Shown here piece by piece: positions 11,136 to 33,612 of a stretch of 64,000 nt of DNA (position 1 is its first letter; each line of letters starts with the position of its first letter). The notes under the pieces are model-generated. The model saw nothing but the letters and a program-made list of their open reading frames with translations. It was not told the origin of the DNA and searched no databases. A program made the translations under genes and the position numbers. This stretch comes from Gammaproteobacteria bacterium (GTDB lineage: Bacteria; Pseudomonadota; Gammaproteobacteria; Steroidobacterales; GCA-2729495), in the NCBI GenBank assembly GCA_030066665.1, contig JASJBD010000001.1, positions 1-64,000 on the forward strand. The letters are read 5' to 3'.

Positions 11136-11501
11136 TTATCGGAGCTGCGACCAGAGATCCTGCACAGCTTCGGGCAACATCGCGTCGGGTTGCGCCCGGC
11201 AGAAATCCAGCATGTGACCGGTCAACGAGTCGAAATTCCAATCCGGACCGTCGACCGGCTGGTCGGCCAGGATTTCGTCGATAGTCTTGCCTGAGCGGGC
11301 ATGCATGTAGCCCTGCGCCCAGGTCAGCGCGGCCTGCTCCATTCCGGCCGGGCCCCAGGGATGGTATTCGACGAACTGTCCGCAGCTGATCGCGCCGAGG
11401 TCAGGCACGCCGGTCATGCCTGGTCGTAATGCCAGCGGCCCGGCAGCCAGCGCCGCGCCGCCGAGCAGTACCCCGAGAAAAAGAATCTTGCGCATTACCA
11501 C
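11136..11501 (-). CDS. Small secreted HdeA/HdeB-like protein
   Basis: Signal peptide; C-x(n)-WAQGYMHARSG...MLDFCRAQPDAMLPEAVQDLW resembles HdeA/HdeB two-Cys helical proteins. Confidence 0.45.
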   Translation of the reverse strand: MVMRKILFLGVLLGGAALAAGPLALRPGMTGVPDLGAISCGQFVEYHPWGPAGMEQAALTWAQGYMHARSGKTIDEILADQPVDGPDWNFDSLTGHMLDFCRAQPDAMLPEAVQDLWSQLR

Positions 11502-12430
11502 TCACCTACTTCGGATGGTTTCTTTGGTGCCTTGTAGATCATCACCGACATGATCGTGAAGGCGATCAGGAACAGCAGCAGTTCGAACCAGTACCGGGTG
11601 GGATACAACCAGATCTCGGTGAGAATGCCCCAGCGCGACGAGATTTCCACGCTGATCCACAGGATATTCGCAGTCGGGATCGCGTAACGCAGCGCCGACG
11701 ATGTGCGGCGGTACTTGATCAGCCGGCTGAAGCAGAAGCCGCCCCAAACGATCGACACGAACACCGTGCCGGCCTCGGCCCAGAACGCCGACTCGCCGAA
11801 GCCGACGAAGGCGGGATCGAATATCAGCAAATTCCAGCCATACATGAACCAGGTGACATAGAACGTCTCCATGAAGGTAATGATGGCGTAGTTGCGGTCG
11901 CGCGCCGTCTTCGTGCGCTCGCCGAGACCCTCGCGCAGGCCCAGCTTGTCCTGGATCCACACGAACATGTTGCAGCGTGTGTCCTTGTCGAAAATGTAGA
12001 ACGCGAGCATGGTCAGCAGCACGCCGATGGTGCCTGCCATGATCAGGTACTCGGGTTCGGTCGTGACCTCGCCGTTTTCGAAGCGCGGCATCATGCCGAA
12101 ATTCTTGCGGCCGTAGTACATGTAGAAGAACTCGACCCAGGCCATCCAGACCACGAGGCCGCCACCGAAACCCATCCAGGTGGCGAAGTTCTCATTGCGC
12201 GATTTGATCCCGTACCACAGCATCACGATGCCGCCGAAGCCGATGAAGATCGACGCGATGTAGGTGTTGTCGTGACCCAGGGCCTCCTCGATCGCCCGCA
12301 TGCCGGCATGGCCAAGCCCCACCGCGAACAGCATGATCAGGGTCGTTATCAGGCCCACGAAGGGCGGACGCCAGAGTTTCGACTTGCCCGGCTGGGCAGC
12401 CTTGGTCTCAGTGGGGGCCGTGCTGGCCAT
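11495..12430 (-). CDS. Polytopic membrane protein of unknown function
   Basis: 311 aa, several strongly hydrophobic segments; overlaps the 11136-11501 gene by 7 nt. Confidence 0.65.
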   Translation of the reverse strand: MASTAPTETKAAQPGKSKLWRPPFVGLITTLIMLFAVGLGHAGMRAIEEALGHDNTYIASIFIGFGGIVMLWYGIKSRNENFATWMGFGGGLVVWMAWVEFFYMYYGRKNFGMMPRFENGEVTTEPEYLIMAGTIGVLLTMLAFYIFDKDTRCNMFVWIQDKLGLREGLGERTKTARDRNYAIITFMETFYVTWFMYGWNLLIFDPAFVGFGESAFWAEAGTVFVSIVWGGFCFSRLIKYRRTSSALRYAIPTANILWISVEISSRWGILTEIWLYPTRYWFELLLFLIAFTIMSVMIYKAPKKPSEVGEW

Positions 12431-12551: not shown

Positions 12552-15500
12552 TCAGAACCGCAATGTGAAAAACGCACCTACGGATTGCTCGTCATAGTCG
12601 CTGTTGAAACGCCCGAGGTAGTCGAGGGACAGGCCGATCCGGTCGCTGCTCCAGGCGACCCCGGCACCGAACACGCCGCTCGTTTCGCCGAGCTGGCGCC
12701 CCTCCAGCTGGAGTACCGTGCCGGGCGCACCGGCATAGGAATAGCTGATCCGCGCGTCGTCGATGTCGAAGTCGTAGTTCAGGCCGGCTGACAGGTGCCA
12801 GTCAAGTTCCCCATCGCCGAGCTGGTGACTGCGGCCCAGGGTAGCACCCGTCTCGCCAAACAACGCGTCCGTCGAGCGGGCAGCGACGATCTGGTTCAGG
12901 CTGCCTGCACCCGTCTCGGTGAAGCCTTTCTCATCGAAATGCACGTACTGCAGTGTCGCGTACGGTTCGATGTATACGGCGTCGAACTCAAACAGCATGC
13001 CCGCACCGGCAAACGTGGCCAGCACGTCGCCCTTGTGGGAGCTGCTCGCGATCCGGGACAGGCCACCGACCTCGAGCAACCGGCGGTTGTCGATGTCCTG
13101 GTCGGTGTACGACGCGCCAAACTCAATGTAGTGGCGCGGTGTGAACCAGCTACCGTAGAGGCTGCCGTACCAACCTTCGATATCTCCCTCGGCAAACGCG
13201 TCGAACATGTCAATTTCGGTTTCGGCCTTGCCGACGCTGGCGCCAACGAGCCAACGTTCACCCAACCGGAAGTCATACCCGAGAGCGAATGCGCCGGTGT
13301 CCTGGTCAAAGGCGGTATAGCCATCCACCTCGTCGAACTTGCCCTTGGACATCAGGCCCAGCAGCCACGCCTGGGAGCGCGATTGCGCATTCGGCTTGCG
13401 TGCAGTCGGTCCGGATGCGCTCATGGCTGGCGCTAGTGCCCCGCCGCTGAATTCCCCGGTGTAGGCACGCGGCGCGAGGTGCGGGCCGCTGTTAAAACCG
13501 ACGCTGGCTTCACCGTTGCTGTTCAGCGACAGCCCGACATTGCCGAGACTGGGCGCCGCCCGTCGCGTGCCACGATACAGCCCGCGACTCATGCGCAAAT
13601 GCGACTGCAACAGGCTCGTGGTTTGCTGAATCATGGACGCACTCCCGACCGCGGAAACCTGGTGCGAATCCGGGCTGAGACTCTGGAAGGCCCGGTCGAA
13701 ACCGTCCTGCATGGACTGCATCCGACCCAGCACCTCGGCGAAGTCCCCGGTTGCATTGCGCGCCACACCATTGAGGTTTCGGGCAATCGTGTCCCGCATG
13801 GGATTCGTCGCGACCTTCTCGAACGGCTCTGCCACCGCCTCGAGTCCGAGGCTGTCGGCATCCTGATCGAGCTCAAAGCGCAGCAACGGCGTCGGTTCGG
13901 GCAAGGTCATCGTGGCAAAGGCATCGGTTACCGCGCCCGTCGCCTCGATCAGGTCGTACCGAGTACCGCCGCGCACAAACGTGTCGCCGCGTTTCTCAAC
14001 CTCGATGTCGCCATCCAGCGACGTGTCACCGTTGATGCTCAATTGGCCGAAGCGGCCGTCGGTGTAAACCGCGGTGACATACTCGCCATCTGCGGCAAAT
14101 TCGTAGTCGCTGTCGAGTGCCAGTGTCCCTTCGTCGACCGTGAGATGCCGCATGCTATCCATGCCGGGCAGCTGATACGTGCCAGCGCCGATCTTGCCGG
14201 CACGCTCGAAGCCCGTCGGGCTGCCGGCGAACGCGCCGGCGCCATTGAGCATCAGCGTATCCACACCACCTGCGGCCGCGGGATTGACCAGCGCGGGATT
14301 CGAATGCGTGATGGTCGGAGTACCCGACAACTCCAGCATGTCGTCGCCTTCGCCCAGTGTCACACTGCCGGTGATGTCGGCTTCGTCGCCGAGGTACAGT
14401 GTGTCATCACCGGCACCGAGGTCGATTGCAACCGTATCCGAGCGTTCCCCGTCGATCAGGATCTGCGCCGAGACAACACCATTGTTTCGCAGCGTGTCAT
14501 TGCCGTCGCCAGTCAGGATCCCGGCGGCCTCGACCACGCTGCTGTCGATGCCCTTGGCCTTGGTGAAGTCCACGCAGGCCTGGTTGCTGCAGCCGCTCAA
14601 TAGGTCCTTTGCCAAGACGGTCACTTCGCCTGTGTTCGTGACATCGTCATCGCCAGCGCCGGTTTCGATACCGATAGCCCGGGATGTGACGAACACGTTG
14701 ATGGTTTCGGAATTCTCCTGCCGCACGTCGGCGACGAATTCACCTTTGCGGTTGTCGGTACGCACCAATGGCGCCGCGGTAACAGTAATTTCGCCTTCGT
14801 TGGTAAAGGTGTCGGCACCATCCCCGCTGGTGATCCCCCTGGCGTCTGCGACCAGCGTCGCTTCGGCGGTGCCGATACCGTCGCCACCGCCGCCGCACCA
14901 CCAACCGAAGAACCAGATACAGATGTCGCCGCCCGAGGCCTCGGCGAAGGACTGCGTGGTCGGCTGGGCAAGCACGGTGATATCGCCGTTGTTCCACAGC
15001 ACATTGTCGCCATCACCGAGTTCGAAGCCGGTTGCGGCTGCTGCTCCAAAGGAAAACGCTTTGCCGGTTGCGTCACCGAAGTTATCGCCATCGGCGGCCA
15101 CGGCAAAAACCGCTTCCGCGGTGGCCGTCACGTTCACCAGGCCAGTGTTGGTCACGTCGTCCCTGGCGTCACCGAGCCGCATACCCCAGGCCGTGGCCGT
15201 GGCACGACTATTGCCTGTCGCGTTGCCGGTACCGCCCAGGCCATTACCATTGGCCGCAGCATAGGAAGGGAAGCTGTCGGCTTCCGCAACCGTCACAACC
15301 TGGATCTCGAGCCCTTCGATCCGCATGCCGTCGACGTCGCGGCCGTCGAACGGTTGCCAAGAATACGTGACTACCGGCGGGTCCTCGCTGTCGTCCGTAG
15401 TGACGTTGACTTCGTAATACGTGGCGGCGGCTTCCGCATCTTCGCCTACCAGGCCCGGATCACGCGTGCAGCCGGTCGACTGGCAGGCCACGACCGTGCC

Positions 15501-18500
15501 TTCCGGATAGAGGGCCTGGTTGGCCGGGTCATCCAGGTCGGGCAGATCCTCGACCGCGGCAAACACCTGCCAGCCGGGCGTGATGATGGTTTCGACGCTG
15601 ACTTCGAAAGGCTCGCTGCCGGCAGAATTCGTCGTACTGCAGGCCGTATCCGTGCAGTACAGGATCGTGCCGTCCGGGTACATCGCCTGGTTGTCCGGAT
15701 CGCTGAGGTCCGGCAGGAAGGCCGACGGGGCAGGCGCCGGATCCGTCGTACCATCGTACTGCCAGCTGAACTCGTCCGTCTCGGCCGCAACCACGGCCTC
15801 GTGGTAGTTACCCTTGCGGTTCACGTCCGTGTTGGGCACACACTCGGCCCCACCGCCGGTGCAGTACACGATTGTGCCGAGCGGGTACTTCTCGCTATTG
15901 GGCTGGCCGGTCTCCGGATCATTCTCGTTGAAGTCCGGCAGTTCCAGCACGACCTCCGGGATCAGGTCCGAATCCGGCTCGACTTCCTCGCTGTTCTGGC
16001 CCTGCAGCCGGTAGACCCGGAACGCCGTTTCCAGCGCCTTCGCGGTCCGGGCCGTCGCCTTGACGTCCAGCGTATTCTCGTTGGTGATCGTGCTGGCATC
16101 GTCGCCGTCCACAATGCCGACCGCGGTCGCCTCTGCCGTACTGCGACCGACCGATGTGCTGGTATTACCAATCGAAATGGTCTGTCCGCTGGCGTATCCC
16201 AGCGCATAACCAGTGGCGTCGGCCTCGACCAGCACCAGGCCCGAGTTTGTGAGTTCGTCGTTGCCTTCGCCGGTACTCAGACCCGTCGCCGTGGCTTTGG
16301 CCACGGTGACCGCGCCAGTCTCAGCGTCGCCGACAAACACGCCTGACTCGGCATTGCCGACCGCATCGGCGACCACGGTCACATCGATGTCGATGGCACC
16401 CGTGTTGGTCAGAATGTCGTCGTCGTCACCACCGTCCATGCCGATCGCGCGCGCAGCCGCTTCGGACGTGCCGACCGCCGAGCTGCCACCGATCGATGTT
16501 TCGGATCCACCATCGGACTTGAGATTGGCCGTCACCGACAGGCTGATATCGCCAGCGTTCTCCAGCGTGTCACCGCCGGCATCGCCGGTAATACCGACCA
16601 CTTCGGCATCACCGGTCAACACGGACGCGGCCGTCGAACCGCCGCCGAAGGTATAGGCGATGGATTCGGTACTCACGTCCGCCGTTGCCGTGATGTCGAT
16701 CTGCGCCCCGGTGCGATTCGCAATCTCGTCGTCTCCGGCACCGCCGCGCAGGCCGCTGGCCTTGACGATGCCGCCGGATACCGTGTTGCCGGACGACGTA
16801 CCAAAGGTCGCCTCCGACTCGCCGACAGAGTCCAGCTTCGCCAACGACTCGATCGAGATGTCGCCGGAGTTGTAGATACGGTCATCGCCCTGGCCACCGA
16901 GAATGCCATCCATCTCGCTCGTCGCTGCCAGTGAATTACCGGACTCACCGGTGCCGCCAAAGGTGTAACTGGAGCTATTCAGTGTCAGGGTCGACGTGGC
17001 ATTCAGCGTCAGCTCGGCCGCACTGTCGATCTCGTCGTCCGCGTCGCCACCGTCAATGCCGGCGCCCCGGGTAATCGCGCCGGTTTCCGCATTCACGTCC
17101 GAGGTGCCGAATACCGTGTCGCTGTCGCCCCTGGACACGAGCGTCGATTGCGCCGTAATCGTGATTGCACCGGTTGCCACGATCCGGTCCTCGCCGGCGC
17201 CGCCGCTGACACCGCGGGCAACCGTCTCGGCCGCCAGTGTCGCGCCAGCGTCGCCCGTGCCGGCGAAGGACGTTGTCCCGCCGTTCTGTACCAGGTTCGA
17301 ACGCGCCTCGATTTCCAGGCTGCCGTCTACGACGAATCGGTCGGCGCCTTCATCACCGCTCATGCCGGTTGCCACGGTATCGGCCGCCAGCGTCGCCGCG
17401 GCCTCACCCGTGCCGGCAAACGTGCTCGTCGTGCCATCCTGGTCCAGTGTCGACGTGGCATTCACGACCAGGCGACGCTCGCCTTGCGGTGCGCCGTCAT
17501 GAATACGCTCACACCCGTCGCTAACGCCACTGCCGATATGCAGGCAGTCATCGCCAACCCCCCCGCTCATGCCAACGGCTGCAGTGCTCGCGGTCAGCTC
17601 CGCGCCATCTTCACCCGTGCCGGCGAACGTGTTCGACGTGCCTTCCTGTTCCAGCCTGGACTCAGCCTCCACTTCCAGTGTTCCGCCGGATTGCAGCTTG
17701 TCGTTACCCGTACCGCCGGACAGGCCGCCGCCCGCGGTCACCGCTCCGGACAGGCCGCCGCCCTCCGACGTGCCGAAAGCGGTGCTGGATCCTGCATTCG
17801 TGGTATTCAGCGCCGTCGCCAGTACCCGCAAGTCGCCTTCGTTCGAGATGTCGTCGTCAGCGTTTCCACCATCGACGCCAATCGCATCGGTCGCGGCAAA
17901 AGCCGACGACTGGGCATCGAAGGCGCCGGCGAATCCGGAGGAAGACGAACTCGCCTCCAGCGTCGCCATCCAGCGCGCCTCGCCTTCTCCCGGCCCGACC
18001 TGCAGGTTGCCCTTGTTCAGGATCCTGTCCCCGCCGTCGCCACCATCGATGCCGGCCAACCGCGTTTCGACTTCCGTACCGGCCCGGGCTGTAGCATCAC
18101 CGGCTGCCGACGCGGAGGCGCCTTCGGCCAGGCTTCTCGATTCACCGTTGACGGCGATCGCGCCCTCGTTCGTGATCATATCGTCGCCCGCATCACCCGC
18201 GAGACCCGCCGCATCGATAAGAGTCAGCGTCTTTGCCGAGCCGTCCGCCAGGCCTGCGACGCTCACTGTCACGTTCTGCGCAACGACGTCGGCTTTGGCA
18301 TCGACATCGATCACACCCGATGCCGTGTTCAGTATCGTGTCGTTGCCTTCTCCACCGGAGGCACCGCCGGCAGACGCGTTCGCCACGGAATCCGCCGAAC
18401 CGATGGATGCGCCCACACCGGCCACAGAAATCGACCGGGTCGTGGTAATGGCCGTATTGGTAATTGTTACGGTGTTCGAATTGACCAGCGTGTCGACGCC

Positions 18501-21500
18501 ATCGCCGCCTTCCAGTGCGCTGCCGCCAACCGTCGAAGTCGCACTGGCATCACTGACTGCCGCACCAACCCCGCTGACGGCAAGCGCCTGGCCGCGCGAC
18601 TTTGCCGTCGCCGCCAGGTCGATCTCGCCTTTGTTGTCGACCAGGTCCTGACCTTCGCCACCGCGCAGACCGGATGTCGTTGCGGTCGCATTCGCATCCG
18701 CCTGCGCAATGCCACCACCCACCAGTGCGATGCTGATCGCCCGCGCCCGGGAGTCGGCCGTGACGGCGCCCGGGGCAACCGAACCGTCCCCGGCCGTCTC
18801 CACCGTGGTGATCGTACCGTCGTTGATCACATCATCATTGCCGGCGCCGCCACTCAGCCCGGCTGCGTCGGCAAAGGTCTCGGCATTCGAATTGGCCGCG
18901 GCAATCCCGCGCAGCGAGACCGCGACCGCGGTATCGACCGCCTTCGCCTGCGACTCGACACGGATATCGGCGTCGGCGGCGTTGGTCACAATATCCCTGG
19001 CGTCACCGCCGGCCAGACCAATGGCCTGCGAATCGGCCGTCGTGCCGGCTTCCAGCAATCCGGCAACCGCAATGCCGTCCAGTACCGCTGCGACGCTGAC
19101 ACCTTCACCGTCGGCCAGGCTCTTCGCGTACACGCTGCTCTCGTTGGTCACCGAATCTTCGCCGGCACCACCATCGAGACCGGTCGCGCGTCCGGTCGCT
19201 GTCGACGCGGCCGCCGCGCCGGCCATGCCGGTCAGCGTCGCCGCAGCGGAAACCGACAGGGTGTCCGCGTCGGCTACCGAAGTCACCTCCGCTGTGTTCA
19301 CGAGGCTGTCGATCCCGTCGCCACCCGTGATACCGGCCGCCGTCGCATTCGCCTTGGTGCCGCCATCCCAGACAGAATCGAAGGCGCCGGCGACACCCGC
19401 GCCGGTCACCGACGCGGCAACAGCCGATGCATCGGCATCGGCAATACTCATTATGTCGCTGGCATTGCGGACATCATCGTCCCCGACACCACCGTCGATC
19501 GCACTGGCGTCGGCATTGGCCGTCGATGTCGTCGTCGATGCGGACACGCCGACGCCGGTCAGCGACACGCCGACCGACACCGCATCGGCATCCGCGATCG
19601 CGGTCACTGTGTTCTCGAAGGCCGGCTCCTCAGCCATCGTTGCCGGGCCATTTTCTTCCGCCTCATCTTCCTCTGGCTCCGACACATCGCCCGAGCGAAT
19701 CAGGTCGCTACCCTCACCACCGGAGATACCGCTGGCCCGCGCACTCGCGGTCGTGCCGCCATCCCAGACGCTGTCGGCCGCCACACCGACGCCGACGCCG
19801 GTCACGGTCAGGCTCACCGCCGTCGCGCTTGCGTTCGCCTCGCCTTGCAGGTTGCTGGCATTGCGAATCTCGTCGTTGCCGAGACCGCCATCGATTGCAT
19901 GCCCGTCGGCGTCAGCCGTCGCCGTTGTCGTGGCGATCGATACACCGGCGCCGGTAATCGCCGCCGTGGTCGCGACGGTCGTCGAGTTCGCCGTCGCGTT
20001 GACTGTGTTCGGGATTGCCGGCTCGTCAGCCGTAGGCGCCGGGTTCTCCGGCTCGGCCGGGAATTCACCCGATGTGATCGTGTCGTTGCCGGTGCCGCCG
20101 CTGATTGCCCGCGCATCGGCCCGCGTCACGGTACCGCCATCCCAGACCGCATCCGCACCGCCGGCCACGCCGACGCCGGTCAGCGCCAGGTTAGCCGCCA
20201 CGGCCACCGCATCCGCGCTGGCATCGAGATCGCCGGTGCTGTTGATTCGGTCGGCGTCATCGCCGCCTTCGATCGCGTTCGCCGCGGCATCGCCCGTCGC
20301 CGTGGAGACGGCCGCGGCGACCCCGCCCGTGGTGTAGGCAACCGACAAGGTCGGCGCGACGGTAGTTGCGTTCGTCGTAATCGCCGCGCTGTTATCGATC
20401 TCGTCGACACCGCTGCCGGCATCGATACCGGAACTGCGGGCCACTGCCGTAGTGCCGCCATCCCAGGCATTGTTGCCAGCTACCGCTACACCGTAGGTGG
20501 CGCCTGCGACACTGATCGTGTTCGCGTTGGCAACCGACGTGACGTCGATGGTGTTGCTCGTCTCCGCATCGTCGTCACCGGCGCCGAGGTCGATCGCAGT
20601 CGAGTCCGCGGTCGCGTTTGCGGCCGTGATCGCGCCACCGACACCGCCGGCAGTCACTGACGCGCTGATCCCGGTCGCGGTAGCCACCGAATCGGTCGTC
20701 ACGGCACCGGTACTGGTCACATCATCGTCGCCGGCACCGACCTCGATACTGGTGGCGTCCGCAACGGCGGTCGTGCCGCCATCCCAGACATTGTTCCCGG
20801 CAACCGCGACGCCGAAACCGGCAAAAGACACCGCTGCCGAAGCCGCTATCGCCGTGGAATCGGCAGTCAGGTTCGCATCGCTGGTCACGACATCGTCGTA
20901 CTCGCCTTCACCGGCATCCAGACCGACGGCATCGGCTTCGGCGGTCGACGTCGCGACCGCGCCGGCCACGCCACCGACCGTGACTGCTACCGATGCCGAC
21001 GCGGCTTCCGCCAGCGTGCTCGCACTGACGTCGATGTCTTCGGTCGCACCCGCCGCCGTCTGGATCACGATGTCGTCTGCACCCAGGCCGGTCTCGACGG
21101 CACGCGCGCGTGTAGCGGCGCTGGTGCCACCATCCCAGATCGCGTCCGCAGCAATCGCCACGCCGGCCGGCGTAACCGCAGCGGTCGCGGTATTCGCAAG
21201 GCCCTTGGAAGCGGCGGTGATGTTGCCACTGCTGGTGACACTGTCCTCGTCGTCACCCTGGCTCACATCGATGCCGCTGGCATTGGCCTCGGCCGTCGAC
21301 GTATTGATGGAGCCCGCAACACCGGCCACGGTCACGCTGACCGCGGCGGAAGCCGCGATCGCATCCGCGTCCGCGTTGATCGAACCTTCGTTGTCGACCG
21401 TGTCGCCGCCCGACCCGCCATCGATACCGCGCGCCCGCGCGTCACCAGTCGTGCCGCCGTCCCAGACCGCACCACCGCTGGTGCCGGATACGCCGAATTT

Positions 21501-24500
21501 GGTCACCGCGACAGCAGCCGCGGTCGCCAGCGCATCGGCCTCTGCATCGAGCGTGCCGGTGTTGGTAATTGTGTCGACATAGTCACCGGCACCGGCATCG
21601 ATCGCGGTTGCATCAGCCGTCCCGGTGGAACTCGCGCTTGCCCCGGACGCACCTTCGATCGCGACCGAAACCGCCAGCTCGGCGACCTTCGAATCCGCAT
21701 GGACATCCACCAACCCGCTGTTGGTGATCTCGTCACCGCCTTCGCCAACGGCAATACCGGTGCTCTTCGTATTGGCCTCCGTGCCGCCGTCCCAGACTTC
21801 CCCGCCGGCGACGCCGACACCCGCTGTGGTTACCGACACGGCTGCGGCGATCGACAGGGCATCGGACTCGACTACCAGGTCGCCGGTATTCGTCACGGTG
21901 TCGACGGCATTGCCGTCACCGGCATTAATACCGATGGCCGTCGCGTCGCCGGTCGCCGTGGCTGTTGCTCCGGCCACCCCGGACACGGCGACACCGACTG
22001 CGGCCTCCGCCGACTTCGCGTCGGCGGTAATCGTCATGTCACCGTCATTGGTAACGTCGTCGCTGCCCTCACCGACGGCAATACCCTGGGCGTCGGCGGT
22101 TGCCGTCGTGCCACCATCCCAGGTCGCGCCGCCGGCCACGGCCACACCCGCCGTGGTAACACTGACCGCTGCCGTCGCCGCAATGGCGTCCGCATCGGCA
22201 ACCAGGGTGCCACTGTTGAATACTTCATCATCAGCATCACCGCTACCGGCATCGATCGCGACAGCGTCGGCTTCACCGGTGGACGTGGCGATTGCACCAG
22301 CCACGCCCTGCACCGCGACGGCGGTCGACAGCTCTGCGACGCGCGCAGTCGACAATGCGTCGACGTCGCCGGTGTTGTTGATTACGTCGGCACCACCGCC
22401 CGTTTCGATACCACGGGATTTCGCATCCGAACCGGTGCCACCATCCCAGACCGCGCCTGCCGCGAGCGCCACGCCCTGGTTCGTCACCGCGACGGTCGCG
22501 GTCGCCGCATTCGATTCAGCATCGGCGACCAGCCTGCCGCTGTTGGTCACCGTATCGACCGCATCGTTGTCTTCATCGCCCGCGTGGATTGCAGTTGCTT
22601 CCGCATCACCGCTGGAAGTTGCACTGGCGCCGGCCACGCCCTGCACCGAGACACCGACCGCGGCTTCCGCAGCGATCGCGTCACTGGTCGCGGTGATGCC
22701 ATTGGTGTTGGTAATCACGTCGGCACCATCGCCAACGTCGATACCTCGTGCCGTAGCCTCAGAGCCCGTGCCGCCGTCCCAGACGGCGCCGGTCGCAATC
22801 GACAAGCCCTGGTTCGTTACAGAGATCGATGAAGCGGCTGCAATCGACAGAGCATCGGCCGTCAATTCACCACTGTTGGTGACGGTATCGACATCGTCAC
22901 CCCCGCTGGCGTCAATTGCGACCGCATCAGCTTTGCCGGACGAAGTTGCGGACGCACCCGCGACACCCTTCATGCTGACCGCGATGCTCGCCGACAGCGT
23001 TTCTGCATCCGCCGACGCGCCGATCTCACCTTCGTTGGTGAGAGTTTCGCCACCTTCACCGAGGTCGATACCGCGGGCGGTCGCCGTTGCGCCGGTACCG
23101 CCATCCCACACGGAATCGAAGGACAGCGCGACACCGCCATTGGTCACACTCACGGAAGCCGCAGCCGCGCGCGCGGTCGAGTCTGCGGACAGTTGTCCCG
23201 AATTGAACACGTCATCCGTGCTGGCGCCGGCCCCGGCATCGATCGCGGTCGCCGTGGAATCCGCGGTTGCTGTAGACGTTGCCACGCCGACGCCCTTGGC
23301 GGCCACGGCCACACCGACCGAACCGGCATTCGCAGTCGCATCGGCATTGATCTCGCCGGTATTGTCGATGTCATCGACGCCGTCGGCGGCTACAGTCTCT
23401 TTCGTAAAGCTGGTGTCGTTGGTACCGATCGACAGGCGTGTATTGCGCGTCCGATCCCCACCGTCACCGGCAATACCGGTCGCCTCGGCTTCGGCCTTGG
23501 TACCACCGTCCCACACGGCATCCGCTGCCGCGGCGACACCCTGGTTCACGACCGCAACGTTGGCCGAGACTGCGTTCGCGTCTGCAGTGGCATTCAACAG
23601 GCCGCTGTTATCGAGCGTATCGTCACCGTCGCCACCACGGATCGCGTTAGTCTTCGCTTCGGCAGTGGACGTCGACACCGCGGCCGCGATTCCGGTCTTG
23701 TTCTCCTGGCCGAGGTCAACGGCGACGCTCAGCGACGGCGCCAGCGCGAAGGCGCTCGCATCGATCTGCCCGGTGTTCGTGACCTCGTCGTTACCGGCCG
23801 CCGCCTGATACTCGTCCGTATAGCGCACGTACGCGACGTCCGAATTGGCCTTCGCGTCGACCATTGTCGTCTTCTGTGCGCCGCTATCTGCGTCGATGCC
23901 TGTCGCGGCTGCTTCCGCCTTGGTGCCGCCGTCCCACACGGAGTTGGCCGCAATGGCGAGACCCTTGCCGGCCACCGCGACATTCGCGAGGATCGCCTCG
24001 GCATCGGCCGCAGCGGTGAGATGGCCGCTGTTGTCGACACTGTCGCCGAGGTTACCGGCTTCGATCGCGCTGGCAGTCGCCTCAGCCGAAGTGCGGCCGA
24101 TCGACAGAGCGACGCCCTCACCGGTAATGCCGGCGGCAACCTCCGGCGCCAGCGCGGAACTGGTTGCCGTTACGTCACCGCTGTTGATGATTTCATCGAT
24201 GCCGTCACCGGCCAGCGTGTCCTCTATCTTGGTGTAATTCGCTTCGACGCCGATGTCATCAAAGTTGATCGCGCCGCTGACCAACGTCGAGTCCTGGGAC
24301 TGACCGGCGCTGTCGATGCCGACCGCACTGGCCTCGGCCTTGTTGCCACCGTCCATCAGGCCGATGTTCGTGGTCGCATTACCGTCGGTCGTGACGGCAA
24401 CGCTCAGAGTCGCGGCGATCGAATCGGAGTCAGCCGTCAGGGTGCCACTGTTGTCGATGAAGTCGGCGCCGCCGCCGGCTTCGATTGCTTTCGAGTCGCT

Positions 24501-27500
24501 CTTCGCGCTGACGTTGACGGTGCTGCTGGCCGAGCCTTCGATCGCAATGGCCACGCCCGCGGCGCCGGCCGTCGAGGTCGCCTCGGCATCCACGCCGCCG
24601 CGGTTCGTAATCTCATCGTCGCCAGTCTGGGTGAACTTCTCGTTCGCATAGCTGCCGGCCAAGCCGTCGCGCGTGATCGACAGGTTGATGTCGGTCTGCC
24701 GGTTCTCGCCGCTGTCACCGGCAATGCCGACCGCGGTTGACTCCGCGGTTGCGCCGGCCTCGACCTCGGCCTTGCCCTTGGAGTTCTCGTCAGCATTCTT
24801 GTTGACTGCGACCGCAAGCGCGCCGCTGATCGCATCGGCACTGGCCGTCAGCTGACCCTCGGTGTCGATGAAGTCGTCTCCGCCGCCGACATCGACCGCG
24901 ACCGCGCGCGATACGGACTTCGCTTTGGCATCAGCCTTCGCGGGTCCGTCCAGGTCAACCGCGCCCGCGCCGGCGCCAGCGCCGGATAAAGTGAGCGCCG
25001 TCGCGGAGACGGCACCCGCATTGTTCACAGTGTCATTCGCAGCGTTCGCAGATTCTTCGTTGCTGTACGCCGTGATAATCCCGTCGGGTCCAATGCTCAC
25101 ATCGGTGGTTGACAACGCTGATTCGCGCCCGTCGTCCGTGGCGATGCCGGTCGCGTTCGCCTGCGCGTCGGACTTGCTCTCGGCCTTGGACTGCACCGCT
25201 TCGCCGGACGGCTGCGTGAAACTGATGGACACTGCACCGGCAGTCGCGTCCGCGGTCGCGGCTAGTGTGCCGCTGTTTGTGACGTCGTCGGCGCCGCCCC
25301 CAGTGAGCACGCCACCGGCCTCGGCCTTCGACTTCGCGTTGGTCTCCGATGAGGCTGTGCCCTCGGTATTGACCTTGACGTCGGCCGCACCGGCCAGCGT
25401 CAGCGCGGTGGCGCTGGCGGTCAAGTCACCGCTGTTGGTCACGTCATCGTCGCCGGCCGCGGATGTGAACTCGCGGTCGACGTCTACGACCAGACCTGCC
25501 GCACTGATGTCCACAACTACGCTGTCGGTCTGTCGGCCAGCGTCGCCCTCGCTGTCGATGCCGCTGGATCGCGCGGTTGCCTCCGCATTCGCCTGGCTAT
25601 TCGCGCTGGCAAAACGTTCCTTGATCTTGTCGAACAGGGTCGGCTTCTGCCCGGTTTCATCGGTAGGCTGCGCGACGCCGACGGTGACACCGAGCGCGGT
25701 AGCCGTCGCCGTCGACGAACTGCCCACGAGGGCCTGGTTGTCGATCGTGTCGCCGCCACCGCCAGTCAGGACACCGCTGGAGGTCGCATTGGCCTTCGAG
25801 TTGGCCTCGGCATCGATCGAACCGTCAGCATTGATCGCGATACCGAGACTGACCGCGCCACTCTCCGCATAGGCCGTGGCCGTGACTGCACCGGTATTCG
25901 TGACCGTATCCGTTGCCCCGAGTGACTCCTTATCCTGCGACCACTGGAAGTTCAGGCCGCTGCCGCTAATCTCCAGGCCGGCGGCGGTGCTGTTCAGGTG
26001 ATCCTTGCCCTCGGCATCGATGCCGATTGCGTTTGCGGTTGCGGTCGCGCTCGCATCGGTCTTGACGTTGGTCTTGTCTTTCTTGTTCTCGCCGTCGCCA
26101 CCGGGCGTCTCGCCAGCCGGTGGTTTGCTCGCCGACAGGCCAAAGCTCACCGAGTCGGCATCCGCGTCGGCGCCGACCAGCAACACGCCACTGTTCGTAA
26201 TCGTGTCACCGCCGGCACCAGTGGCCACACCGACGGCCTCGGCCTCGGCGACGGCCTTGGCTTCGGAGTTGACCGAGCCGACCGCGTCGATCTGGATGCT
26301 GGCGTCGACCGAGTCGGCTCCGGCACGGGCGTTCACGGTGACGCCGAACTCGTTCGTCACCGTATCGGTTCCGGCAGCTTTTGCCTTGTCACGCGACAGG
26401 CCAAATTCGAGGCCGTCGACACCGAGGCTCAGCGAACCGGTCGTTGTTTCATTCTCGCCCGGACCATCCGCGTCGATACCCGACGCCCGCGCTTTGGCCG
26501 TTGCGTTGTTCTCGGTCTTCGATGTGATCTTGTCGGGGCTGGCCGGCGTCGGCGGATCGTCCTGGCCACCGCCGTTCTGTCCACCGCTGTCGTCCACCGG
26601 CTGGCCGACTGCCACACCAACGCTGACCGCCGTCGCATTGGCGTTCGATTCCGTAGTGAGCAGGCCGAGATTCGTGATGATGTCGTTGCCGAAGCCGGTC
26701 GAGATCGCGCCCGCATAGGAATCGGCCTCGGCGTTCGCCTTGGCTTCGGCCGAGCCCGCGCTGGCGATGGTCACGCCAACTGCGCCGGAACCGGCGGTCG
26801 CCGTGCCGAAGGCCTGCAACGCGAAGTCGTTGGAGACCGTGTCATTGCCCTCCAGGTACTCGACGACCTTCTGGTAATCGATCACCAGCGCATTGTCGTC
26901 GATGCCAGCAGAAAAACTGGTGGTCTCGGAACGGGCATCGCCGTCAGCCGTGATGCCGGTTGCTTCGGCCTTGGCCTTGGCCGTGGCATCGGTGCTGCTC
27001 TTGCTTTCCTTGTCCTTGGACGGCGTCGGCGGTTTTGGCGCGCCGTTGTCGTTACCGTTGCTGCCGCCGCCGCCCGTCTGGCCGTTCTCATCCTTCGCGC
27101 CGATCTCGACAGCAACCGCGACCGACCCCGAAGTTGCAGTCGCCGTGGTCAGCAGCTCGCCGTTGTTGTCGATCGTGTCGCTGCCGCCGCCACCGTTCAC
27201 GCCGGAGCCGGTCGCTTCGGATTCGGCGGTGGCTTTGGTTTCGACACTGCCGTCGACCTGCACACTGACAGAGCCGGATCCGGCGCCGCTGGTTGCAGTG
27301 GCGTTGCCAGTCAAAAAGCCGTTGTTCGTAATGGTGTCGTCGCCACTCGGCGACGACACGGTCTTGTCGTATGTGACCTGCAGCCCGTTCAGGCCAAACG
27401 CGGAACTGTCCTTGTTCTCGTTTTCGAGTTCGGCTTCATCACCGTGAATGCCGGTGACCTCGGCCTTCGACGTCGCCTTTGCTTCAGTCGTAATGTTTGC

Positions 27501-28304
27501 GTCCTTGTCAGGTTTTGGCAGCGTATCGCCCGGGGCGGTAAGCCCCACTGCCAGCGCGCCGCTGGTCGCGGTTGTCGTCGTGCCGTAGGCAATGTTGTTC
27601 GTGATGGTGTCATTTCCGCCACCGCCCTGAATGCCGGTGCCGGTCGCTTCAGAGGCCGAGGTGGACTTGAATTCCGCAGACTCGCGCACTGTCGCGTTCA
27701 ATTCGCCGGTCGCGTTACCGGTCGTCGCGAAGCCATTGGTCGTCAGGATGCCGTCGTTCTCGAGCGTGTCGTTGCCGTCGCCGAGGTCCACGCCGAGCAT
27801 TTCGGTCTTGGTCGTGATCGATACGTCGACTTCTTTGTCGTCGCCGAGCGGGTCGATCTGCTGGAACTCCAGTATGGCCCCGTCGGCATAACCGCCGGTC
27901 GACGCGCCGAGCGCGTTAATGATCGAGTCGTTGTCAACGGTGTCATTGCCGTCGCCGGCCTTGATTGCAGTGCTTGTCGCGTTCGCCTCGGTCTCGTCAG
28001 GCTCCTGGGTCAACAGTGCGGTCGCAGTCGCATTCGAGTCCACGCCCAGCGTGCTGGTAATCGAGTCATCGCCATCCTTGGCATCAATACCGGTCGCGGC
28101 GGCGCTGACCTTTTCGCCGGTGTCGGTAATGACGGTGGCAACAGCCGAGAGTGGCAGGCCTGGCTCAATAACATCGGCAGCATCCGTGCCCGTGAGACCG
28201 GTATCGGTTTCTTCCTGGTCCGCGCGGACCGACAACGGCAGGTTCGAGACGAGGCAAAGGCTGAGGATGGACGCAGGTAGAGACCCGGCAACGATCCTTG
28301 TCAT
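12552..28304 (-). CDS. Giant repetitive autotransporter-type (type V) surface protein, 5250 aa
   Basis: Single uninterrupted ORF; Sec-like signal MTRIVAGSLPASILSLCLVSNLPLSVRA; long A/T/D/G-rich passenger with GGxGND/GDGDDTITN-type repeats; C-terminal about 270 aa look like an autotransporter beta-barrel (WLLGLMSKGKFD...GALGYDF-like strands) ending in ...VGAFFTLRF. Confidence 0.9.
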   Translation of the reverse strand: MTRIVAGSLPASILSLCLVSNLPLSVRADQEETDTGLTGTDAADVIEPGLPLSAVATVITDTGEKVSAAATGIDAKDGDDSITSTLGVDSNATATALLTQEPDETEANATSTAIKAGDGNDTVDNDSIINALGASTGGYADGAILEFQQIDPLGDDKEVDVSITTKTEMLGVDLGDGNDTLENDGILTTNGFATTGNATGELNATVRESAEFKSTSASEATGTGIQGGGGNDTITNNIAYGTTTTATSGALAVGLTAPGDTLPKPDKDANITTEAKATSKAEVTGIHGDEAELENENKDSSAFGLNGLQVTYDKTVSSPSGDDTITNNGFLTGNATATSGAGSGSVSVQVDGSVETKATAESEATGSGVNGGGGSDTIDNNGELLTTATATSGSVAVAVEIGAKDENGQTGGGGSNGNDNGAPKPPTPSKDKESKSSTDATAKAKAEATGITADGDARSETTSFSAGIDDNALVIDYQKVVEYLEGNDTVSNDFALQAFGTATAGSGAVGVTIASAGSAEAKANAEADSYAGAISTGFGNDIITNLGLLTTESNANATAVSVGVAVGQPVDDSGGQNGGGQDDPPTPASPDKITSKTENNATAKARASGIDADGPGENETTTGSLSLGVDGLEFGLSRDKAKAAGTDTVTNEFGVTVNARAGADSVDASIQIDAVGSVNSEAKAVAEAEAVGVATGAGGDTITNSGVLLVGADADADSVSFGLSASKPPAGETPGGDGENKKDKTNVKTDASATATANAIGIDAEGKDHLNSTAAGLEISGSGLNFQWSQDKESLGATDTVTNTGAVTATAYAESGAVSLGIAINADGSIDAEANSKANATSSGVLTGGGGDTIDNQALVGSSSTATATALGVTVGVAQPTDETGQKPTLFDKIKERFASANSQANAEATARSSGIDSEGDAGRQTDSVVVDISAAGLVVDVDREFTSAAGDDDVTNSGDLTASATALTLAGAADVKVNTEGTASSETNAKSKAEAGGVLTGGGADDVTNSGTLAATADATAGAVSISFTQPSGEAVQSKAESKSDAQANATGIATDDGRESALSTTDVSIGPDGIITAYSNEESANAANDTVNNAGAVSATALTLSGAGAGAGAVDLDGPAKADAKAKSVSRAVAVDVGGGDDFIDTEGQLTASADAISGALAVAVNKNADENSKGKAEVEAGATAESTAVGIAGDSGENRQTDINLSITRDGLAGSYANEKFTQTGDDEITNRGGVDAEATSTAGAAGVAIAIEGSASSTVNVSAKSDSKAIEAGGGADFIDNSGTLTADSDSIAATLSVAVTTDGNATTNIGLMDGGNKAEASAVGIDSAGQSQDSTLVSGAINFDDIGVEANYTKIEDTLAGDGIDEIINSGDVTATSSALAPEVAAGITGEGVALSIGRTSAEATASAIEAGNLGDSVDNSGHLTAAADAEAILANVAVAGKGLAIAANSVWDGGTKAEAAATGIDADSGAQKTTMVDAKANSDVAYVRYTDEYQAAAGNDEVTNTGQIDASAFALAPSLSVAVDLGQENKTGIAAAVSTSTAEAKTNAIRGGDGDDTLDNSGLLNATADANAVSANVAVVNQGVAAAADAVWDGGTKAEAEATGIAGDGGDRTRNTRLSIGTNDTSFTKETVAADGVDDIDNTGEINADATANAGSVGVAVAAKGVGVATSTATADSTATAIDAGAGASTDDVFNSGQLSADSTARAAAASVSVTNGGVALSFDSVWDGGTGATATARGIDLGEGGETLTNEGEIGASADAETLSASIAVSMKGVAGASATSSGKADAVAIDASGGDDVDTVTNSGELTADALSIAAASSISVTNQGLSIATGAVWDGGTGSEATARGIDVGDGADVITNTNGITATSDAIAAEAAVGVSVQGVAGASATSSGDAEATAIHAGDEDNDAVDTVTNSGRLVADAESNAATATVAVTNQGVALAAGAVWDGGTGSDAKSRGIETGGGADVINNTGDVDALSTARVAELSTAVAVQGVAGAIATSTGEADAVAIDAGSGDADDEVFNSGTLVADADAIAATAAVSVTTAGVAVAGGATWDGGTTATADAQGIAVGEGSDDVTNDGDMTITADAKSAEAAVGVAVSGVAGATATATGDATAIGINAGDGNAVDTVTNTGDLVVESDALSIAAAVSVTTAGVGVAGGEVWDGGTEANTKSTGIAVGEGGDEITNSGLVDVHADSKVAELAVSVAIEGASGASASSTGTADATAIDAGAGDYVDTITNTGTLDAEADALATAAAVAVTKFGVSGTSGGAVWDGGTTGDARARGIDGGSGGDTVDNEGSINADADAIAASAAVSVTVAGVAGSINTSTAEANASGIDVSQGDDEDSVTSSGNITAASKGLANTATAAVTPAGVAIAADAIWDGGTSAATRARAVETGLGADDIVIQTAAGATEDIDVSASTLAEAASASVAVTVGGVAGAVATSTAEADAVGLDAGEGEYDDVVTSDANLTADSTAIAASAAVSFAGFGVAVAGNNVWDGGTTAVADATSIEVGAGDDDVTSTGAVTTDSVATATGISASVTAGGVGGAITAANATADSTAIDLGAGDDDAETSNTIDVTSVANANTISVAGATYGVAVAGNNAWDGGTTAVARSSGIDAGSGVDEIDNSAAITTNATTVAPTLSVAYTTGGVAAAVSTATGDAAANAIEGGDDADRINSTGDLDASADAVAVAANLALTGVGVAGGADAVWDGGTVTRADARAISGGTGNDTITSGEFPAEPENPAPTADEPAIPNTVNATANSTTVATTAAITGAGVSIATTTATADADGHAIDGGLGNDEIRNASNLQGEANASATAVSLTVTGVGVGVAADSVWDGGTTASARASGISGGEGSDLIRSGDVSEPEEDEAEENGPATMAEEPAFENTVTAIADADAVSVGVSLTGVGVSASTTTSTANADASAIDGGVGDDDVRNASDIMSIADADASAVAASVTGAGVAGAFDSVWDGGTKANATAAGITGGDGIDSLVNTAEVTSVADADTLSVSAAATLTGMAGAAAASTATGRATGLDGGAGEDSVTNESSVYAKSLADGEGVSVAAVLDGIAVAGLLEAGTTADSQAIGLAGGDARDIVTNAADADIRVESQAKAVDTAVAVSLRGIAAANSNAETFADAAGLSGGAGNDDVINDGTITTVETAGDGSVAPGAVTADSRARAISIALVGGGIAQADANATATTSGLRGGEGQDLVDNKGEIDLAATAKSRGQALAVSGVGAAVSDASATSTVGGSALEGGDGVDTLVNSNTVTITNTAITTTRSISVAGVGASIGSADSVANASAGGASGGEGNDTILNTASGVIDVDAKADVVAQNVTVSVAGLADGSAKTLTLIDAAGLAGDAGDDMITNEGAIAVNGESRSLAEGASASAAGDATARAGTEVETRLAGIDGGDGGDRILNKGNLQVGPGEGEARWMATLEASSSSSGFAGAFDAQSSAFAATDAIGVDGGNADDDISNEGDLRVLATALNTTNAGSSTAFGTSEGGGLSGAVTAGGGLSGGTGNDKLQSGGTLEVEAESRLEQEGTSNTFAGTGEDGAELTASTAAVGMSGGVGDDCLHIGSGVSDGCERIHDGAPQGERRLVVNATSTLDQDGTTSTFAGTGEAAATLAADTVATGMSGDEGADRFVVDGSLEIEARSNLVQNGGTTSFAGTGDAGATLAAETVARGVSGGAGEDRIVATGAITITAQSTLVSRGDSDTVFGTSDVNAETGAITRGAGIDGGDADDEIDSAAELTLNATSTLTLNSSSYTFGGTGESGNSLAATSEMDGILGGQGDDRIYNSGDISIESLAKLDSVGESEATFGTSSGNTVSGGIVKASGLRGGAGDDEIANRTGAQIDITATADVSTESIAYTFGGGSTAASVLTGDAEVVGITGDAGGDTLENAGDISLSVTANLKSDGGSETSIGGSSAVGTSEAAARAIGMDGGDDDDILTNTGAIDIDVTVVADAVGNAESGVFVGDAETGAVTVAKATATGLSTGEGNDELTNSGLVLVEADATGYALGYASGQTISIGNTSTSVGRSTAEATAVGIVDGDDASTITNENTLDVKATARTAKALETAFRVYRLQGQNSEEVEPDSDLIPEVVLELPDFNENDPETGQPNSEKYPLGTIVYCTGGGAECVPNTDVNRKGNYHEAVVAAETDEFSWQYDGTTDPAPAPSAFLPDLSDPDNQAMYPDGTILYCTDTACSTTNSAGSEPFEVSVETIITPGWQVFAAVEDLPDLDDPANQALYPEGTVVACQSTGCTRDPGLVGEDAEAAATYYEVNVTTDDSEDPPVVTYSWQPFDGRDVDGMRIEGLEIQVVTVAEADSFPSYAAANGNGLGGTGNATGNSRATATAWGMRLGDARDDVTNTGLVNVTATAEAVFAVAADGDNFGDATGKAFSFGAAAATGFELGDGDNVLWNNGDITVLAQPTTQSFAEASGGDICIWFFGWWCGGGGDGIGTAEATLVADARGITSGDGADTFTNEGEITVTAAPLVRTDNRKGEFVADVRQENSETINVFVTSRAIGIETGAGDDDVTNTGEVTVLAKDLLSGCSNQACVDFTKAKGIDSSVVEAAGILTGDGNDTLRNNGVVSAQILIDGERSDTVAIDLGAGDDTLYLGDEADITGSVTLGEGDDMLELSGTPTITHSNPALVNPAAAGGVDTLMLNGAGAFAGSPTGFERAGKIGAGTYQLPGMDSMRHLTVDEGTLALDSDYEFAADGEYVTAVYTDGRFGQLSINGDTSLDGDIEVEKRGDTFVRGGTRYDLIEATGAVTDAFATMTLPEPTPLLRFELDQDADSLGLEAVAEPFEKVATNPMRDTIARNLNGVARNATGDFAEVLGRMQSMQDGFDRAFQSLSPDSHQVSAVGSASMIQQTTSLLQSHLRMSRGLYRGTRRAAPSLGNVGLSLNSNGEASVGFNSGPHLAPRAYTGEFSGGALAPAMSASGPTARKPNAQSRSQAWLLGLMSKGKFDEVDGYTAFDQDTGAFALGYDFRLGERWLVGASVGKAETEIDMFDAFAEGDIEGWYGSLYGSWFTPRHYIEFGASYTDQDIDNRRLLEVGGLSRIASSSHKGDVLATFAGAGMLFEFDAVYIEPYATLQYVHFDEKGFTETGAGSLNQIVAARSTDALFGETGATLGRSHQLGDGELDWHLSAGLNYDFDIDDARISYSYAGAPGTVLQLEGRQLGETSGVFGAGVAWSSDRIGLSLDYLGRFNSDYDEQSVGAFFTLRF
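15340..16000 (-). repeat. Cys-pair repeat insert in the giant protein (3 copies)
   Basis: LPDFNENDPETGQPNSEKYPLGTIVYCTGGGAEC / LPDLSDPDNQAMYPDGTILYCTDTAC / LPDLDDPANQALYPEGTVVACQSTGC. Confidence 0.8.
16440..17810 (-). repeat. F(A/G)GT(G/S)-type repeat block of the giant protein (about 9 copies)
   Basis: TSNTFAGTGEDGAELTAS, TTSTFAGTGEAAATLAAD, TTSFAGTGDAGATLAAE, SDTVFGTSD, SSYTFGGTGESGNSLAA and related in series. Confidence 0.7.
19340..23945 (-). repeat. VWDGGT repeat block of the giant protein (14 motif copies, about 320-420 nt spacing)
   Basis: 14 copies of (V/A/I/T)WDGGT counted in the translation; DNA signature gt(g/a)ccgccatccca near 19360, 19757, 20137, 20455, 20776, 21130, 21452, 21787, 22109, 22437, 22774, 23096, 23507, 23926. 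Confidence 0.85.
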
Positions 28305-28645
28305 TGTGACCCCCTTAATTTGTCACACGGTGAGACGGAGGACTTTGCGCCGGTGGCAGAATTCGCTTAGGGAAAGAGCGATAAATGCGTGCGGCTAATA
28401 ATGGTTTTGTCCTCGGGGAACAACGTAGGGTCGAGACAGAGACCTCTCAATAGGTACGAACCGTAATTGTCCCGGATGAAGGAATAGGGAGATAATTGGG
28501 GGGGTTTTTAGATAAATAGCCCCTCCCAATGCCAACGCACTGATACTGTTCATCTACCGGCTACAGCGCGCAGCCAGCGCGCCAGGCCGGTCCGCAATAC
28601 AGAAAATACGTTCCTCTTACATAAGAACAGCCAGAGGCACACACC

Positions 28646-29500
28646 ATGATTCTGCTAACCGGCGCCACCGGCAACACCGGCGGCGAAGCCGCCAAACACC
28701 TGGCTGCGGCTAAAGCTCCATTTCGCGTTCTGATCCGTAATCCCGACAAGGCCGGACCGCTGGAAGAGCTGGGCGCGGAGATTGCGATCGGCGATTTCGG
28801 CGATGCCGAGGCTCTGCGCCAGGCGCTCGCTGGTGTCGACAAGGCCTACCTGGTTACGCCGAACGAGGAAGATCAGCCACAGTGGGAGCGCCAGTTCATC
28901 GAGCTGGCACAGGAGGCCGGCGTGAAACACATTGTCTATCTGTCGTCGATGGAGTCCGTGCCGGGCGCCACGACGCAGGTCACGCAGGCGCACGTGGCTG
29001 CGGAACAGCAGCTCCGGGATTCCGGCTTGACCTGGACCATGATTCGGCCGACATTTTTCAACCAGCTGTTGCTGAGCACGGCGCGCGGCGTCAAGGCGAA
29101 AGATGCCATCGTGTTTCCGCTCGGGAGTGGCCGGCTGGTCACGACCGACGTGCGCGATATCGGTGAGGTCATTGCCAAAGTGCTGACCGAGCCGGGCCAC
29201 GAAAACCAGAGCTACGACATCACCGGGCCCGATCTGGTGACCATGACCGAGGTCGCCGAGAAGTTCTCGAAAGTGCTCGGCCGCCAGATCGACTACGTCG
29301 ATCAGCCGATCGAGGAATTCGCCGGCATCCTGCGCATGATCGGCATGAAGGACTGGCGCGTCGACGCGGTTTGCGAAGAACTGGCCATGATCGCCGCCGG
29401 TTCACTCGAGCATCGGACGGACACAATCGAGAAACTGCTGGGGCGCCCGCCGATCTCGCTTGACCAGTTCATCTCGGACTACAAGGCCGCCTTCGAGTAA
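28646..29500 (+). CDS. NmrA-family atypical SDR (NAD(P)-binding)
   Basis: MILLTGATGNTGGEAAKHLAAAKAPFRVLIRNPDKAG; HIVYLSSMES; TWTMIRPTFFNQ. Confidence 0.85.
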   Translation: MILLTGATGNTGGEAAKHLAAAKAPFRVLIRNPDKAGPLEELGAEIAIGDFGDAEALRQALAGVDKAYLVTPNEEDQPQWERQFIELAQEAGVKHIVYLSSMESVPGATTQVTQAHVAAEQQLRDSGLTWTMIRPTFFNQLLLSTARGVKAKDAIVFPLGSGRLVTTDVRDIGEVIAKVLTEPGHENQSYDITGPDLVTMTEVAEKFSKVLGRQIDYVDQPIEEFAGILRMIGMKDWRVDAVCEELAMIAAGSLEHRTDTIEKLLGRPPISLDQFISDYKAAFE

Positions 29501-31500: not shown

Positions 31501-31516
31501 GGCAAGGCAAAGGCTT

Positions 31517-33611: not shown

Positions 33612-33612
33612 T

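What the first reader, a model, noticed from the sequence alone, without database searches (positions are those of the whole stretch)
12552..28304. Single 15.75-kb gene for a 5250-aa autotransporter-like protein
Seen: uninterrupted ORF covering almost a quarter of the window, with signal peptide, repetitive acidic A/T/D/G-rich passenger and a C-terminal barrel ending in Phe. Many repeats contain GGxGND/GDGDDTITN elements similar to RTX-type Ca-binding nonapeptides. Combining RTX-like repeats with a type V barrel in such a long passenger is unusual.
Basis: partly seen in the sequence, partly recalled or inferred. Interest (0 to 1): 0.7.

Follow-up and report, generated by a model that had tools for sequence, protein, structure and literature searches.

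The report
Giant autotransporter with 53-residue solenoid repeats
One 15.75-kb bacterial gene encodes a very large, probably surface-anchored protein that carries its own outer-membrane exit barrel and about 75 imperfect copies of a 53-residue unit, each with a single calcium-toxin-like GGxGxD loop; the gene is real and rare, and its repeat seems undescribed, but the way it gets out of the cell is a known one.

Summary
The gene is real. It lies on the MINUS strand, 12552-28304, with 5250 aa and no stop. It has an N-terminal signal-like segment, an acidic passenger (pI 4.05) and a C-terminal PF03797 barrel (E=9e-48) ending in Phe. Misassembly is unlikely: no 25-mer recurs in its DNA, and seven homologues of about 2,850-4,530 aa occur in other genomes, one on a single-contig 5.4-Mb chromosome. 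The passenger is about 75 copies of a ~53-aa unit, each with one RTX-like nonapeptide (GGxGxDxU; D 88%, two glycines 79% and 86%). These are never in tandem and no HemolysinCabind match exists, so it is not an RTX protein by definition. AlphaFold2 gave confident solenoid-like models of two stretches (pLDDT 94), including a divergent one from a seven-ortholog alignment; PDB Foldseek found no match. The simplest reading, one wide coil per repeat, would stack the GGxGxD loops along one edge, as in the one-sided calcium roll of MpIBP; this is unproven. Best explanation: a giant type Va autotransporter, most likely an adhesin or surface stalk, with a passenger found in no profile library searched. 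Its length is not a record (BigE, 10,429 aa). In one same-genus genome the site holds a short different ORF instead.

The parts
12552..28304 (-). Complete gene, 5250 aa, about 513 kDa
   Evidence: codon-position GC 0.64/0.55/0.76
28310..28316 (-). Shine-Dalgarno-like AAGGGGG, 5 nt before the ATG
   Evidence: sequence read directly
28221..28304 (-). Probable Sec signal peptide, aa 1-28 (MTRIVAGSLPASILSLCLVSNLPLSVRA|DQEE)
   Evidence: hydrophobic stretch and an A-D-Q junction shared with orthologs G018, G092 and G099; no predictor run
14466..28106 (-). Repeat region, aa 67-4613: about 75 copies of a ~53-aa unit, consensus stAtAtAtGIdgGdGdDtitNsGtitvtAtAtagavsvavtvaGvasadatvt
   Evidence: iterated repeat HMM
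19356..23936 (-). aa 1457-2983: repeats grouped in ~109-aa pairs, every second one ending in a WDGGT motif (14 copies)
22110..23096 (-). aa 1737-2065, first AlphaFold2 segment (six repeats), pLDDT 93.8, pTM 0.89
16308..17237 (-). aa 3690-3999, second AlphaFold2 segment (divergent repeats, seven-ortholog alignment), pLDDT 94.3, pTM 0.88
15210..16040 (-). aa 4089-4365: non-solenoid insert with three ~60-70-aa modules (xPDxxDPxNQAxYxDGxIVxC...C...YxVxV...YSWxxxDG), a candidate ligand-binding or disulphide module
   Evidence: no Pfam match, no significant PDB sequence match
13371..14129 (-). aa 4726-4978: pre-barrel region (autochaperone-like stretch plus linker) inside the TIGR01414 match
   Evidence: TIGR01414 E=3.4e-22 over residues 80-604 of the C-terminal 604 aa; the autochaperone reading is inferred
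12618..13370 (-). aa 4979-5229: PF03797 autotransporter beta-domain; the protein ends ...FFTLRF
   Evidence: E=9e-48; 3.5e-49, the only PF03797 place in its genome
11495..12430 (-). Flanking gene: membrane protein of unknown function; marks one side of the variable site
28646..29500 (+). Flanking gene: NmrA-like NAD(P)-binding protein; marks the other side of the variable site

Best explanation
This is a giant monomeric (type Va) autotransporter. Steps inferred from family knowledge: Sec export, barrel insertion by BAM and possibly TAM, C-to-N passage of the passenger, and folding outside, nucleated near the barrel. The passenger is an unusual beta-solenoid: one ~53-residue repeat contributes a 10-residue strand, a six-residue GGxGxD loop, a 4-residue strand ending in a conserved Asn, a tight turn, and a long (25 or more residue) strand run. 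If one repeat is one coil, about 73-77 coils make a rod of roughly 35 nm with an unusually wide cross-section, decorated near the membrane by small Cys-containing modules. Most likely use: a surface-anchored adhesin or biofilm stalk; repeat number changes by whole units and the gene comes and goes as a single unit. Shown: gene, barrel, repeat, family, presence/absence. Predicted: solenoid. Inferred: secretion, one coil per repeat, function.
For: PF03797 and TIGR01414 matches; C-terminal Phe in all eight proteins; TamB present in the own genome. Seven homologous giants: about 48% identity (G018), 49% (G576), 42% (G099 = G545), 40% (G578) and 39% (G092) in the C-terminal 604 aa; about 35% for G100, a Rhodocyclales MAG; and G989, a single-contig 5.4-Mb chromosome. 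The window protein and G018 align over 4351 residues at 51% identity, pN 0.35 against pS 0.59, and the large indels are 120, 126, 138 and 445 aa, close to whole repeat pairs. 457 repeats in eight proteins share one profile. Two AlphaFold2 models agree; the second used only seven orthologous sequences of about 26-49% identity.
Against: No wet data. AlphaFold2 can give confident but false beta-solenoids for near-perfect random repeats (PMC11795689); ours are imperfect and supported by orthologs, which lowers the risk but does not remove it. Signal peptide judged by eye. Adhesin function is by analogy.
Confidence: 0.6

Rival explanations
1. Calcium-ladder version: the GGxGxD loops of successive coils stack on one edge and bind Ca2+ as in one side of an RTX beta-roll, so the passenger folds or stiffens only outside the cell where calcium is high. 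It would work like RTX while using a type V barrel.
For: The loop keeps the RTX pattern in 457 repeats: Gly 79% and 86% at the two positions that need positive phi, Asp 88%, hydrophobic residue 99% two residues after the Asp. In RTX rolls the calcium is shared by same-edge loops one coil apart, and MpIBP has a continuous roll with calcium on one edge only, with motif xGTGND-xUxU (PMC6891781). Passenger strongly acidic.
Against: Loops are ~53 residues apart in sequence and never in tandem. The first Gly of the motif is Gly in only 48% of repeats, although it is preferred in canonical RTX (MpIBP tolerates x there). All three loop residues Gly-x-Gly-x-Asp are intact in only 46-69% of repeats per protein. 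GxGxD can also be an ordinary glycine-rich turn with an Asp cap. Requires one coil per repeat, which is unproven.
Confidence: 0.25
2. Ordinary autotransporter beta-helix: each 53-residue repeat is two (or more) conventional coils, with the GGxGxD turn once every second coil; only size and sequence are new.
For: 53 is about twice a common coil size; the hydrophobic alternation shifts phase around profile positions 34-36, as a corner would; most type Va passengers are beta-helices (general knowledge; PMC5767081).
Against: Both models show no break in strand assignment across the long segment; insertions are rare between profile positions 28 and 50, although two coils per repeat should expose turns there; Foldseek found no PDB beta-helix, best TM-score 0.14.
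Confidence: 0.3
3. AlphaFold2 artefact: the passenger is largely disordered or built of separate small beta domains, and the solenoid is the known bias for repeats.
For: Documented AlphaFold2 blind spot for beta-solenoids (PMC11795689); composition is low-complexity (A/G/T/D/S about 60%).
Against: The bias was shown for perfect repeats; here repeats in the second segment are about 30% alike, no DNA 25-mer recurs, positions alternate small-inside and polar-outside as a solenoid needs, and five models of each segment all scored 89 or above.
Confidence: 0.1
4. Assembly or gene-calling artefact: the frame or repeat number is wrong in the real genome.
For: The genome is a fragmented assembly, 171 contigs, 87% complete.
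Against: No repeated DNA 25-mers, one trivial tandem array, coding-like codon positions, uninterrupted giant homologues in seven other genomes including a single-contig chromosome.
Confidence: 0.03

Closest known systems
Type Va (classical) autotransporters, PF03797 / TIGR01414
   Same: C-terminal barrel ending in Phe, pre-barrel stretch within the TIGR01414 match, N-terminal signal-like segment, long passenger
   Different: Passenger has no Pfam or NCBIfam match of its own; 53-aa repeat, predicted structure without PDB match
BigE, the 10,429-aa autotransporter described by Celik et al. 2012 (PMC3419190)
   Same: Giant type Va autotransporter enlarged by internal repeats
   Different: BigE has an eight-fold copy of a common passenger domain and eight 69-residue repeats; here about 75 copies of one 53-aa unit. 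The two sequences were not compared here
RTX proteins and RTX adhesins (type I secreted)
   Same: GGxGxDxU loop, acidic, repetitive, extracellular
   Different: Loop once per ~53 residues, never in tandem; no PF00353 match; C-terminus is a type V barrel
MpIBP ice-binding region (atypical one-sided RTX roll; PMC6891781)
   Same: One calcium-type loop per coil, all on one edge, in one continuous solenoid (if our one-coil reading holds)
   Different: 19-residue coils against ~53; type I secretion; calcium binding shown there, not here

Membership tests
Type Va autotransporter | C-terminal PF03797 beta-domain above the curated cut-off | tested here: met
   163.7 bits against cut-off 26, positions 1-254 of 255
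Type Va autotransporter | Terminal aromatic residue (Phe) of the barrel | tested here: met
   Phe in the window protein and all seven homologues
Type Va autotransporter | N-terminal Sec signal peptide | tested here: inconclusive
   Hydrophobic stretch and conserved A-D-Q junction by eye; no predictor available
Type Va autotransporter | Passenger in the same polypeptide, N-terminal to the barrel | tested here: met
   Single open frame
Type Va autotransporter | Passenger actually reaches the cell surface | not testable with these tools
   Needs surface labelling or proteomics
RTX protein | Nonapeptides GGxGxDxUx in tandem | tested here: not met
   0 tandem pairs in 20-23 strict or relaxed matches, and in all five of the proteins scanned; loose 5-residue pattern gave one tandem pair in G100 only
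RTX protein | PF00353 (HemolysinCabind) match | tested here: not met
   No match reported at E up to 10 in any passenger piece; HMMER filters drop most very weak matches
RTX protein | Type I secretion, C-terminal uncleaved signal | tested here: inconclusive
   The C-terminus is a PF03797 barrel, which makes a type I signal unlikely; type I machinery was not searched
RTX protein | Calcium binding | not testable with these tools
   Pattern compatible, binding unmeasured
Classical beta-helix passenger (pertactin, pectate-lyase-like) | Structural match to solved beta-helices | tested here: not met
   Foldseek against the PDB: no match at E<=0.001 for either model, TM at most 0.14

The most novel reading that the evidence does not exclude
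An autotransporter whose passenger is a beta-solenoid with one coil of about 51-58 residues per repeat, on one edge of which some 70 GGxGxD loops stack into a one-sided RTX-type calcium ladder: an RTX-like calcium-dependent folding principle moved from type I to type V secretion, in a fold without a PDB match.
Probability: 0.18. Interest if true: 0.72.

Novelty: new variant of a known kind. Interest (0 to 1): 0.45.

Why it matters
Passenger folding outside the cell is thought to help drive type V secretion, and calcium-triggered folding does so for RTX proteins in type I secretion. A type V passenger with about 70 stackable RTX-type loops would let one ask whether calcium can pull a half-megadalton chain through a single barrel. 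The repeat is also a confidently predicted all-beta structure without a PDB match, so it is a good target for structure determination, and its eight-protein repeat profile (457 copies) gives a ready family model for databases that now see only the barrel.

Tried and rejected
Tandem RTX nonapeptides: none. Pfam and NCBIfam on the passenger: nothing significant; one sub-threshold Calx-beta match, 18.6 bits against cut-off 27, E=0.002. Repeat profile against PDB sequences: nothing significant. Foldseek against PDB with both models, and against viral models with the first: no credible match, best TM about 0.2. Repeat in plasmid or phage records: no match; plasmid matches to the C-terminus are generic barrels below 31% identity. 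A second autotransporter in the own genome: none. An alignment of overlapping repeat windows (A3) misaligned and was discarded for the seven-ortholog alignment A4. Terminal repeats at the edges of the variable site: only 7-8-base chance matches. DNA tandem arrays as assembly hazard: none that matters. Literature on Woeseiaceae autotransporters: no paper in the library. The insert modules recall small carbohydrate-binding modules; not tested beyond Pfam and PDB sequence searches.

Full report
WHAT IS THERE. Window 12552-28304, minus strand, is one open frame of 5250 codons without a stop. A Shine-Dalgarno-like AAGGGGG lies five bases before the ATG. GC by codon position is 0.64/0.55/0.76, as for a coding gene, and across eight homologues the third position ranges from 0.62 to 0.93 while the second stays near 0.53-0.61. 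The long plus-strand frames listed over the same stretch (up to 1170 aa) are most simply shadows of this GC-rich gene.

DOMAINS. The C-terminus matches the autotransporter beta-domain (PF03797, E=9e-48, 163.7 bits against a cut-off of 26), and TIGR01414 extends the match upstream through the pre-barrel region. The last residue is Phe in all eight homologous proteins. The own genome has no other PF03797 place and encodes TamB. No Pfam or NCBIfam model matches the passenger significantly; the one weak Pfam signal, Calx-beta at 18.6 bits, is below its cut-off of 27.

THE REPEAT. An iterated profile HMM finds 75 copies of a 53-position repeat in the window protein and 457 in eight proteins (50 shuffled passengers gave a single domain of at most 6.6 bits). 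Consensus: stAtAtAtGIdgGdGdDtitNsGtitvtAtAtagavsvavtvaGvasadatvt. Positions 12-20 read GGxGxDxUx: Gly 48%, Gly 79%, x, Gly 86%, x, Asp 88%, x, Ile/Val/Leu about 97%, followed by Asn 80% at position 21. The median distance between successive Asp residues is 53.5 residues. The strict nonapeptide is never followed by another nine residues later. Outside the loop, small residues (Ala) alternate with polar ones (Thr, Asp, Ser, Asn). Insertions fall mainly after positions 14, 16, 20-22 and 26 and between repeats, and rarely between 28 and 50.

REALITY AND RELATIVES. No exact 25-mer recurs in the 15.75 kb of DNA and TRF finds only one 36-base array, so collapse or expansion by a short-read assembler is unlikely. 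Giant homologues with uninterrupted frames occur in G018 (about 4526 aa), G576 (frame 4238), G099 (frame 4435; the same contig place and score as G545, so counted once), G578 (frame 4339), G092 (4242), G100 (frame 2868) and G989 (3359, single-contig 5.4-Mb chromosome). Named records behind some of them: Chromatiales MAG JAEUQA010000055.1, Woeseiaceae MAG JABDOQ010000040.1, gammaproteobacterial MAG JAOTYE010000020.1, Rhodocyclales MAG JACRIZ010000056.1. In sampled genomes the family is rare: 6 of 396 in the order including the own genome, and in a 369-genome class sample only generic barrels besides the own gene. Window protein and G018 align over 4351 residues at 51% identity with pN 0.35 and pS 0.59 (pS is near saturation, so this is only a rough sign of selection); their large indels are 120, 126, 138 and 445 aa, near whole repeat pairs.

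A VARIABLE SITE. In same-genus genome G004 the two flanking genes (83% and 78% identical at protein level) are neighbours 729 bp apart. That gap holds a different open frame of about 220 aa and no giant gene; the DNA match stops near both flanking genes, with no terminal repeats beyond chance. In G018 the giant gene lies beside an AMP-binding enzyme instead. The gene therefore behaves as a single-gene presence/absence unit. Gain and loss cannot be told apart from this.

PREDICTED STRUCTURE. AlphaFold2 on aa 1737-2065 with 62 repeat-register rows gave pLDDT 93.8 and pTM 0.89: strands of 10, 4 and 25 residues per repeat. A stricter second test on aa 3690-3999 used only seven orthologous sequences (26-49% identity) and gave pLDDT 94.3 and pTM 0.88 with the same pattern; the only regular non-strand elements per 51 residues are the six-residue GGxGxD loop and a two-to-four-residue turn after it. 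Foldseek against 350,542 PDB chains returned nothing at E<=0.001 for either model, with TM-scores up to 0.14. Lack of a Foldseek match is negative evidence only. AlphaFold2 is known to give confident false beta-solenoids for perfect random repeats (PMC11795689); the low repeat identity and the ortholog alignment speak against that here but do not exclude it.

MECHANISM. Shown: gene, barrel, repeat family, presence/absence at the site. Predicted: beta-solenoid passenger. Inferred: type Va export; if one coil equals one repeat, a rod of about 35 nm (73-77 coils at 0.48 nm), wide in cross-section; adhesin or biofilm-stalk use. In RTX rolls, calcium is held between same-edge loops one coil apart, with ligands from two Gly carbonyls and the Asp, and MpIBP shows a continuous roll with calcium on one edge only (PMC6891781). 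The conserved Gly-x-Gly-x-Asp here would be in place for such a one-edge ladder, but the first Gly is only 48% conserved, the full Gly-x-Gly-x-Asp is intact in 46-69% of repeats depending on the protein, and calcium binding is untested.

INSERT. Near the barrel (aa 4089-4365) three modules of about 60-70 aa, mostly with a Cys pair, interrupt the repeats; G092, G099 and G578 have two each at the same place and G018 one without Cys. No Pfam match and no significant PDB sequence match. They are the best candidate for a ligand-binding part.

VERDICT. A real, rare giant type Va autotransporter family with a repeat that no library searched here describes. It is a new variant of a known kind. Size is not a record (BigE 10,429 aa, PMC3419190). 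The RTX label is not met by definition; an RTX-like calcium ladder remains an open and testable possibility.

Noticed in passing
window 30643-35139 (+): Four-gene nitrogenase-like cluster: two tandem NifH-family iron proteins followed by two Oxidored_nitro-type subunits. All score far below every NCBIfam equivalog cut-off (nifH 282 and 301 bits against 394; BchB 154 against 490), so it looks like an uncharacterised nitrogenase-like system with two Fe proteins.
   Followed up: partly
window 15210-16040 (-), aa 4089-4365: Three tandem ~60-70-aa modules, mostly Cys-paired, inserted in the solenoid near the barrel, conserved in several orthologs and without Pfam match.
   Followed up: partly
L063 (G004:C147), between the two flanking genes: In a same-genus genome the site of the giant gene holds a different ~220-aa open frame, so the place looks like a variable site with alternative content.
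   Followed up: partly
window 2691-3776 (+), 4550-5569 (-), 6574-7734 (-), 36321-42834: Surroundings rich in LLM-type oxidoreductases, a Rieske oxygenase, alpha/beta hydrolases and FAD-linked oxidases, as in a catabolic region.
   Followed up: no
window 11495-12430 (-): 311-aa hydrophobic membrane protein without Pfam match, with several paralogues in relatives.
   Followed up: no
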